Assembly: GCF_039536205.1 (NCBI RefSeq)
Contig: NZ_BAAAYL010000001.1
Span: 6,262,001-6,326,000 of the forward strand
Source of the DNA: Streptomyces sannanensis
GTDB lineage: Bacteria > Actinomycetota > Actinomycetes > Streptomycetales > Streptomycetaceae
Direction: 5' to 3'
DNA: 64,000 nucleotides
Under the pieces are notes generated by a model. The model saw only the letters and a list, made by a program, of their open reading frames with translations, was not told the origin of the DNA and did not search any database. The stretch's first letter is position 1. Each line of letters begins with the position of its first letter. The translations under genes and the position numbers were made by a program. Shown here piece after piece: positions 34,855 to 35,068 of the stretch.

Positions 34855-34945
34855 CGGAGAGGGCAGGATTCGAACCTGCGTGGGCCGTGGCCCGACCGTT
34901 GAGCTGAAGCTCGGGTCCCCGATAAGCCGCTCCGGGCACCTCTCC
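34855..34945 (-). tRNA. anticodon-less class II tRNA-like RNA, copy 1
   Basis: Read on the minus strand, all 91 bases fit a tRNA fold: 7-bp acceptor (GGAGAGG/CCTCTCC), D-arm CCCG/CGGG with a GG-containing loop, T-arm GCAGG/CCTGC with loop TTCGAAT, variable arm GGGC/GCCC, and discriminator G. The anticodon position is instead GACC/GGTC, an internal loop, then GAGC/GCTC capped by TTCA; no 5-bp stem with 7-base loop can form. CCA is not encoded. Acceptor start, G73 and long variable arm resemble bacterial seryl-tRNAs, which are charged without reading the anticodon. It lies beside an aminoacyl-tRNA-dependent transferase gene. A scan may label it tRNA-Sec or undetermined. Confidence 0.72.
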
Positions 34946-34977
34946 ATGACCGACCCGGGAATTCCGGGTGGGTTCCG

Positions 34978-35068
34978 CGGAGAGGGCAGGATTCGAACCT
35001 GCGTGGGCCGTGGCCCGACCGTTGAGCCGAAGCTCGGGTCCCCGATAAACCACTCCGGGCACCTCTCC
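34978..35068 (-). tRNA. anticodon-less class II tRNA-like RNA, copy 2
   Basis: Same 91-base fold as copy 1, offset by exactly 123 bases, and differing at only three positions: two in the D-loop (GAGTGGTTTAT against GAGCGGCTTAT) and one in the cap of the anticodon-position arm, which is TTCG here. UUCG is an ultra-stable tetraloop, confirming that this arm is a structural hairpin and not an anticodon loop. All stems are kept. It is promoter-proximal, about 57 bases after SARP site 2. The 32 bases between the copies contain ACCCGG and CCGGGT, a small hairpin that may guide processing. Confidence 0.72.

What the first reader, a model, noticed from the sequence alone, without database searches (positions are those of the whole stretch)
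34855..35068. A pair of anticodon-less, seryl-type tRNA-like genes next to a tRNA-dependent transferase
Two 91-nt genes, 123 bases apart and differing at three positions, fold completely as class II tRNAs on the minus strand (acceptor 7 bp, D 4 bp, T 5 bp with TTCGAAT, variable arm, discriminator G). The anticodon arm is replaced by GACC/GGTC + GAGC/GCTC capped with TTCA or TTCG. None of the shifted registers I tried gives a 5-bp stem with a 7-base loop. Changes fall only in loops. Established: SerRS recognises acceptor and long variable arm, not the anticodon; valanimycin uses seryl-tRNA as donor and brings its own SerRS. Inference: here the cell brings its own non-coding tRNA, serylated by the housekeeping SerRS, invisible to ribosomes, and reserved for the DUF2156 enzyme. 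I know of no described case.
Basis: partly seen in the sequence, partly recalled or inferred. Interest (0 to 1): 0.96.

Follow-up and report, generated by a model that had tools for sequence, protein, structure and literature searches.

The report
Anticodon-less serine tRNA for azoxy biosynthesis
Streptomyces azoxy-antibiotic gene clusters appear to carry their own transfer RNA that has lost its anticodon, probably a private serine carrier that feeds the pathway instead of the ribosome.

Summary
Two 91-nt class II tRNA-like genes (34855-34945, 34978-35068, minus strand) keep acceptor, D, variable and T arms and G73; a short-loop hairpin replaces the anticodon arm. They belong to a family: of 123 distinct sequences, 9 could form a 5-bp/7-nt anticodon arm, 2 with U33. 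In 392 Streptomyces genomes I counted 147 copies in 51 genomes; all 51 also encode a relative of the window's DUF2156 (VlmA-type) transferase, which 82 of 392 have. Of 107 lead copies, 94 have SARP-type boxes upstream. The window genome has five exact triple-box sites: two precede tRNA-likes (one 305 kb from the cluster) and two precede biosynthetic genes. In 31 of 88 transferase loci the cluster also brings a divergent SerRS; all 31 lie in genomes with the tRNA-like. Best reading: a pathway-regulated, non-decoding seryl-tRNA that donates serine to the VlmA-type enzyme. Transcription, charging and transfer are untested. A clade of 19 transferases and three otherwise similar clusters lack it. 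The searches of open papers listed no description of it.

The parts
34978..35068 (-). anticodon-less seryl-type tRNA-like gene, promoter-proximal copy (discriminator G73 at 34978)
   Evidence: CM R1 98.2 bits; fold; ARAGORN calls it tRNA-Ser(gct) with a mismatched stem
34855..34945 (-). anticodon-less seryl-type tRNA-like gene, second copy in tandem (discriminator G73 at 34855)
   Evidence: CM R1 98.2 bits; fold
35126..35152 (-). SARP-type box array GTCAG-N6-GTCAG-N6-ATCAG before the tRNA-like pair; -10-like CATTGT at about 35110-35115 (my reading)
   Evidence: one of 3 exact triple sites in the window and of 5 in the genome; same layout upstream of many family copies
35201..36241 (+). VlmA-type aminoacyl-tRNA-dependent transferase (PF09924, formerly DUF2156), proposed consumer
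   Evidence: Pfam 219 bits; co-occurrence; divergent from the tRNA-like pair
36459..36485 (+). SARP-type box array about 100 bp before the desaturase gene
36584..37798 (+). fatty-acid desaturase-like gene
   Evidence: PF00487; present in many relatives' loci
20604..20630 (+). SARP-type box array about 160 bp before the aldehyde dehydrogenase gene
20787..27672 (+). biosynthetic genes: aldehyde dehydrogenase, acyl-CoA-dehydrogenase-like (VlmH role presumed), class III aminotransferase, SRPBCC protein, 182-aa hypothetical, and a 408-aa protein that is VlmB-like by similarity
   Evidence: Pfam (the AurF match of the 408-aa protein is below its cut-off); it aligns with the annotated VlmB-like gene of L232
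29022..30242 (+). beta-ketoacyl synthase
30486..31409 (-). SARP regulator (BTAD and Trans_reg_C domains), candidate activator of the three box arrays (binding inferred)
   Evidence: PF03704, PF00486

Best explanation
The two genes encode a non-decoding, serine-type tRNA that belongs to the azoxy biosynthetic pathway. The pathway SARP turns them on together with the biosynthetic genes. The transcript is processed to a class II tRNA body whose anticodon arm is only a structural hairpin, so it cannot read codons. It gets CCA and is charged with serine, here by the only SerRS found in the genome and in many relatives by a cluster-borne second SerRS. The VlmA-type DUF2156 enzyme takes the serine to O-acylate an alkyl hydroxylamine, as VlmA does in valanimycin. 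Shown by sequence: the fold, the loss of a usable anticodon arm, family conservation, co-occurrence, the shared promoter signature and the SerRS linkage. Inferred: SARP binding, expression, charging, the donor role and exclusion from translation.
For: Co-occurrence: 51 of 51 genomes with the tRNA-like have the DUF2156 relative, against 82 of 392 overall; hypergeometric P 9.6e-43, not corrected for kinship. 31 of 42 DUF2156 loci have a divergent copy just upstream; 10 of the other 11 genomes have copies elsewhere. 11 of 11 Streptomyces plasmid records with the transferase match the tRNA-like. Boxes: 94 of 107 lead copies have two or more at 11-bp spacing, 61 three; shuffles 1 and 0 of 2140. Whole genome: 5 exact triple sites, reversed-pattern control 0, about 0.04 expected from base composition. 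SerRS2: 31 of 31 loci are in tRNA-like-positive genomes. Bacterial serine identity elements listed in PMC9976931 (passages seen) are present except G30-C40: G73 in 42 of 42 distinct complete CM hits; C72, G2-C71, G4-C69 and, by my numbering, C11-G24 in 30 of 30; long variable arm. Anticodon region: a hairpin in 123 of 123, loop of 3-5 nt in 116. A51-U63 in 42 of 42 is one of the weak EF-Tu pairs named in PMC4052509 (passages seen); the genome's four tRNA-Ser have G51-C63 (my reading).
Against: A clade of 19 VlmA-type proteins lacks the tRNA-like, and so do three clusters with the same gene set, L115, L117 and L151, so the enzyme class does not need it. No transcript or charging data. The window cluster has no SerRS of its own. 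82 of 147 copies are far from the transferase gene or on another contig. In two of the 51 genomes (G168, G300) the only relative is a distant one of 35-36% identity, about 2.3 kb from the copy. The amino acid might not always be serine: PMC9379638 proposes alanyl-tRNA for azodyrecin (passages).
Confidence: 0.77

Rival explanations
1. The RNA belongs to the pathway but is not the serine donor: it acts as a regulator, decoy or sink (for example titrating SerRS or sensing serylation), while VlmA uses ordinary Ser-tRNA.
For: The linkage evidence fits any pathway role. 22 of 88 transferase loci are in genomes without it.
Against: The parts conserved are those needed for charging (acceptor and T arms, G73; mean column entropy 0.04-0.08 bits against 1.29 in the anticodon arm), and it goes with a second SerRS. 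A regulator need not keep a chargeable acceptor.
Confidence: 0.13
2. The charged RNA is the donor for another cluster enzyme or carries another amino acid.
For: One array lies near alaS, a carrier-protein gene and a phosphopantetheinyl transferase on a plasmid; another near adenylation enzymes.
Against: Scattered copies share no neighbour family (at most 5 of the 40 loci examined). The linked synthetase is a SerRS. G73 and A3-U70 do not fit AlaRS, whose bacterial determinants A73 and G3-U70 are in PMC9976931.
Confidence: 0.06
3. They are degenerate or mis-scored tRNA-Ser(GCU) genes, or remnants left by integration of mobile DNA.
For: ARAGORN calls copy 2 tRNA-Ser(gct). Copies are scattered and occur on plasmids.
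Against: In the loci scanned ARAGORN assigns other copies to Leu, Val, Ala, Arg, Ile, Thr or unknown. Stems are kept by compensatory change. An upstream signature is conserved. No match in 50,697 phage records; three IMG/VR contigs that share the 3' 25 bases score 43-59 bits, below the family.
Confidence: 0.03

Closest known systems
VlmA/VlmL seryl-tRNA route of valanimycin
   Same: DUF2156-type transferase, VlmH/R/B-like partners, a SARP (title seen in a reference list) and in many relatives a second SerRS
   Different: the passages I saw treat the tRNA as ordinary cellular tRNA; here the tRNA body is a dedicated gene without a usable anticodon. Whether the valanimycin cluster itself has one was not checked
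Non-proteinogenic tRNA-Gly of Staphylococcus aureus (cell-wall bridge)
   Same: tRNAs set aside for non-ribosomal transfer, with weak EF-Tu pairs including A51-U63 (PMC4052509, passages)
   Different: those keep an anticodon (recalled) and serve the cell wall, not a SARP-type antibiotic cluster
Pseudo-tRNA tRNA-Other of Bacillus cereus (PMC3399842, abstract)
   Same: tRNA-like gene that does not function in translation
   Different: [quoted passage not shown] not tied to a transferase
tmRNA and viral tRNA-like structures (recalled)
   Same: chargeable tRNA-like bodies without a normal anticodon
   Different: different architecture and function; tmRNA is alanylated and works on the ribosome
tRNA-Sec and allo-tRNA (PMC7609411, passages)
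   Same: non-canonical tRNAs with long variable arms, serine-accepting (partly recalled)
   Different: they have longer acceptor and anticodon stems and decode (partly recalled); this family has 7/5 acceptor/T arms and no anticodon loop

Membership tests
canonical tRNA-Ser | class II fold with G73, G2-C71, R4-Y69, long variable arm | tested here: met
   elements from PMC9976931
canonical tRNA-Ser | 5-bp anticodon stem with 7-nt loop, U33 and a serine anticodon | tested here: not met
   9 of 123 could form 5 bp/7 nt, 2 with U33; ARAGORN anticodons disagree between copies
Rfam RF00005 tRNA | score at or above 29 bits | tested here: not met
   28.2 and 18.5 bits
VlmA-type azoxy cluster | DUF2156 transferase with a VlmH-like and a VlmB-like protein | tested here: met
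   annotated relatives name a flavin reductase and a VlmB-like protein
VlmA-type azoxy cluster | product is an azoxy compound | not testable with these tools
   no metabolite data
SARP regulon | direct repeats 11 bp apart, the 3' repeat 8 bp from the -10 (rule in PMC10936776, passages) | tested here: met
   11-bp repeats tested; the 8-bp spacing is my reading of the consensus
SARP regulon | binding and activation by the SARP | not testable with these tools
   no binding data
non-proteinogenic tRNA | weak EF-Tu binding and no use in translation | tested here: inconclusive
   A51-U63 in 42 of 42 fits weak binding; no binding data
tRNA-Sec / allo-tRNA | acceptor stem longer than 7 bp and an anticodon loop | tested here: not met
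   7 bp plus 5 bp, hairpin without anticodon loop

The most novel reading that the evidence does not exclude
A private aminoacylation system: an anticodon-free tRNA family, a matching cluster SerRS and a VlmA-type transferase form an orthogonal unit in which RNA serves as a dedicated aminoacyl carrier for antibiotic synthesis, switched on by the pathway SARP from copies dispersed over chromosome and plasmids.
Probability: 0.5. Interest if true: 0.95.

Novelty: new variant of a known kind. Interest (0 to 1): 0.9.

Why it matters
[quoted passage not shown] A dedicated tRNA without an anticodon would answer that directly for many azoxy clusters: serine loaded on it cannot be spent on ribosomes. 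It would add an RNA gene class to biosynthetic gene clusters, give a marker for genome mining of azoxy compounds, and offer a natural candidate for an orthogonal SerRS/tRNA pair.

Tried and rejected
Phage origin: no BLAST match among 50,697 phage records; three IMG/VR contigs share the 3' 25 bases but score 43-59 bits. A shared neighbour for scattered copies: none in the 40 loci examined; not all scattered copies were fetched. Undetected divergent tRNA-likes in DUF2156 loci without a model hit: a generic T-arm/acceptor/D-arm scan found 0 in 632 kb, and ARAGORN 0. The generic scan is not fully sensitive: in 581 kb of positive loci it gave 31 hits (30 family copies, one tRNA-Pro) but missed copies the model finds in L133, L136, L137, L139, L140 and L141. 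A more distant SerRS group as control: 3 of 32 genomes carry the tRNA-like, 4.2 expected. The fifth triple-box site (G000:C1:3946080) lies between genes that look, by eye, like a response regulator and a sensor kinase; probably chance.

Errors corrected and choices made: one search used an antisense frame as the SerRS query (its SerRS column is void; redone). In the tree locus L090 was labelled 'none' because a regex missed it; one search shows a copy (corrected). One search counted T-stem pairs on sequences chosen by a regex that fixes them, so I use instead. The 65-bit cut-off was set after seeing the scores (68.6 bits, then 60.8, 57.6 and 54.4, where the list ends); the matches below it, present in most genomes, are presumably ordinary tRNAs but were not checked one by one. 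Copy numbers are lower bounds (at most 10 candidates per genome scored). The box motif was seen first in the window and then tested elsewhere; of 149 copies 126 had a distinct upstream of sufficient length and 107 were lead copies. Related copies are not independent. Locus L071 (a contig fragment) could not be judged: no copy in its assembly.

Full report
What is there. The minus strand of 34855-35068 holds two tandem 91-nt genes. Both fold without constraint into a class II tRNA body: 7-bp acceptor, D stem, variable arm, 5-bp T stem with TTCGAAT, discriminator G. Where the anticodon arm should be there is a GACC/GGTC stem and a GAGC/GCTC stem capped by TTCA or TTCG. Standard tools nearly miss them: Rfam tRNA 28.2 and 18.5 bits against a cut-off of 29; ARAGORN calls only copy 2, as tRNA-Ser(gct). 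A third copy lies 305 kb away in the same genome, with a compensatory acceptor change.

The family. BLAST with copy 1 found matches in 21 of 150 Streptomyces genomes; in three of these (L052-L054) the match is another tRNA-like sharing only the 3' end. From 30 members I built a covariance model. The structure is kept: 97.4% of cells paired, 8 pairs with changes on both sides against 2.8 in shuffles. Acceptor and T arms are almost invariant (mean column entropy 0.04-0.08 bits); the anticodon arm is not (1.29 bits, to which alignment gaps add). Of 123 distinct sequences collected by pattern from the fetched loci, all fold with a hairpin in the anticodon region: 116 with a 3-5 nt loop, 3 with a 7-nt loop. 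Nine could form 5 bp with a 7-nt loop at the expected place, two with U33. ARAGORN gives different copies Ser, Leu, Val, Ala, Arg, Ile, Thr or unknown identity. So the RNA has been kept as a tRNA body but not as a decoder.

Link to the DUF2156 enzyme. In 392 Streptomyces genomes the model finds 147 copies of 65 bits or more in 51 genomes; the next matches are 60.8 bits and below. A relative of the window's transferase (E 1e-20 or better) is in 82 of the same 392. All 51 are among the 82 (hypergeometric P 9.6e-43, not corrected for kinship). Some of the 82 are other long DUF2156 proteins of 41-46% identity, and in two positives (G168, G300) the relative is only 35-36% identical. In 24 of 51 genomes a copy lies within 1 kb of the transferase gene, in 28 within 5 kb, in 39 within 20 kb, in 42 within 40 kb; 61 of 147 copies are on other contigs and 21 over 40 kb away. 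From the other side, of 42 transferase loci found in a named collection, 31 have a copy just upstream and divergent; 10 of the remaining 11 genomes have copies elsewhere, up to 15; the last is a contig fragment without one. They include two Actinokineospora (another family). A class-wide sample of 394 genomes gave 5 positive genomes, in 2 of 137 genera: the window genome and four others, each with the transferase on the contig of its copies; the one outside the genus also has a second SerRS close to them. On plasmids, 11 of 11 Streptomyces records with the transferase also match the tRNA-like, out of 14 records that do; two of the other three belong to strains whose chromosome has the transferase (S. 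griseofuscus; and the record whose length and match position equal G117:C2).

Exceptions. Of 88 transferase loci, 51 have a local copy, 14 have one elsewhere in the genome, 22 have none and one is unknown. In a tree of 87 of them the 22 are one supported clade of 19 rows plus L115, L117 and L151 (read with the L090 correction). By tblastn within about 10 kb the clade of 19 has a smaller, more distant gene set; the other three have the same biosynthetic genes and SARP-type sites but no tRNA-like. So the transferase class can work without it.

Control region. Upstream of many copies are (G/A)TCAG boxes 11 bp apart, then a -10-like CAnnnT preceded by TG, then a short leader. Taking each repeat as a heptamer GTCAGNN, the last ends 8 bp before that hexamer (my reading). 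This fits the SARP rule in PMC10936776 (passages). Of 107 lead copies (19 of the 126 were downstream tandem copies), 94 have two or more boxes and 61 three; dinucleotide shuffles gave 1 and 0 of 2140. In the window the exact triple occurs three times (4 matches when one mismatch is allowed, 0.04 expected): before the aldehyde dehydrogenase gene, before the tRNA-like pair and before the desaturase. In the whole 7.83-Mb genome it occurs five times (reversed-pattern control 0): these three, one before the distant third tRNA-like copy, and one that is probably chance. So the distant copy carries the same signature as the cluster. A SARP gene lies at 30486-31409. SARP binding is inferred.

Which amino acid. 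Bacterial serine identity is listed as G73, C72, G2-C71, R4-Y69, C11-G24, G30-C40 and a large variable region, independent of the anticodon (PMC9976931, passages). All but G30-C40, which went with the anticodon stem, are present in the family (C11-G24 by my numbering). A second SerRS, 36-42% identical to the housekeeping one, is in 31 of 88 transferase loci, all 31 in positive genomes: 24 with a local copy, 7 with copies elsewhere. Genome-wide, the 23 genomes with a SerRS at least 69% identical to the L069 one are all positive (P 2e-23). A more distant group of 57-61% identity, leaving out three cases near the tRNA-like, shows no link (3 of 32, 4.2 expected). One annotated plasmid shows DUF2156, flavin reductase, VlmB-like protein and serS within 16 kb of the tRNA-like; that gene table holds proteins only, so the missing RNA annotation means nothing. 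The window genome has one SerRS by two searches, so there the housekeeping enzyme must do the charging if it happens.

How it most likely works. SARP switches on enzymes and carrier RNA together; SerRS loads serine; the VlmA-type enzyme transfers it (a PF09924 protein; PDB relatives include lysyl- and alanyl-phosphatidylglycerol synthases). The RNA cannot decode. Its A51-U63 pair (42 of 42 distinct complete hits) is one of the weak EF-Tu pairs in PMC4052509 (passages), against G51-C63 in the genome's four tRNA-Ser (my reading), which fits exclusion from translation. Dispersed copies would raise dosage in trans. Apart from the stated observations this paragraph is inference.

Literature. Nine searches of the open PMC library aimed at this (a tenth was for SARP sites) listed no paper whose title or abstract describes a tRNA gene dedicated to an azoxy or other antibiotic cluster. 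Searches showed 20 of 77 and 20 of 328 papers. I saw abstracts, outlines or passages, not whole papers; most subscription papers and preprints are not held, so prior description cannot be excluded. The 2022 azodyrecin paper suggests the cellular tRNA pool for its cluster (PMC9379638, passages); a 2026 review has no occurrence of 'tRNA gene', 'tRNA-like' or 'dedicated tRNA' in its main text (PMC12945691).

Noticed in passing
L052-L054; own genome G000:C1:816060-816132 (L230): Another odd tRNA-like shares the T arm; ARAGORN gives a four-base 'cgat' for the own-genome gene.
   Followed up: no
G271, G212, G100 and others: A second SerRS group, 57-61% identical to the L069 one, is in 32 Streptomyces genomes with no statistical link to the tRNA-like; its surroundings were not examined.
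   Followed up: partly
L155, L172, L180: In three genomes two tRNA-like copies bracket a 3-5 kb block that shares some genes.
   Followed up: no
L064 (plasmid NZ_CP109557.1): A tandem tRNA-like pair lies about 1.2 kb from an annotated alaS gene.
   Followed up: no
L066 and similar copies: Some scattered copies are followed, by eye, by a strong inverted repeat, like a standalone gene with its own terminator.
   Followed up: no
window 47214-47287 (+): Ordinary tRNA-Pro(GGG) gene.
   Followed up: no
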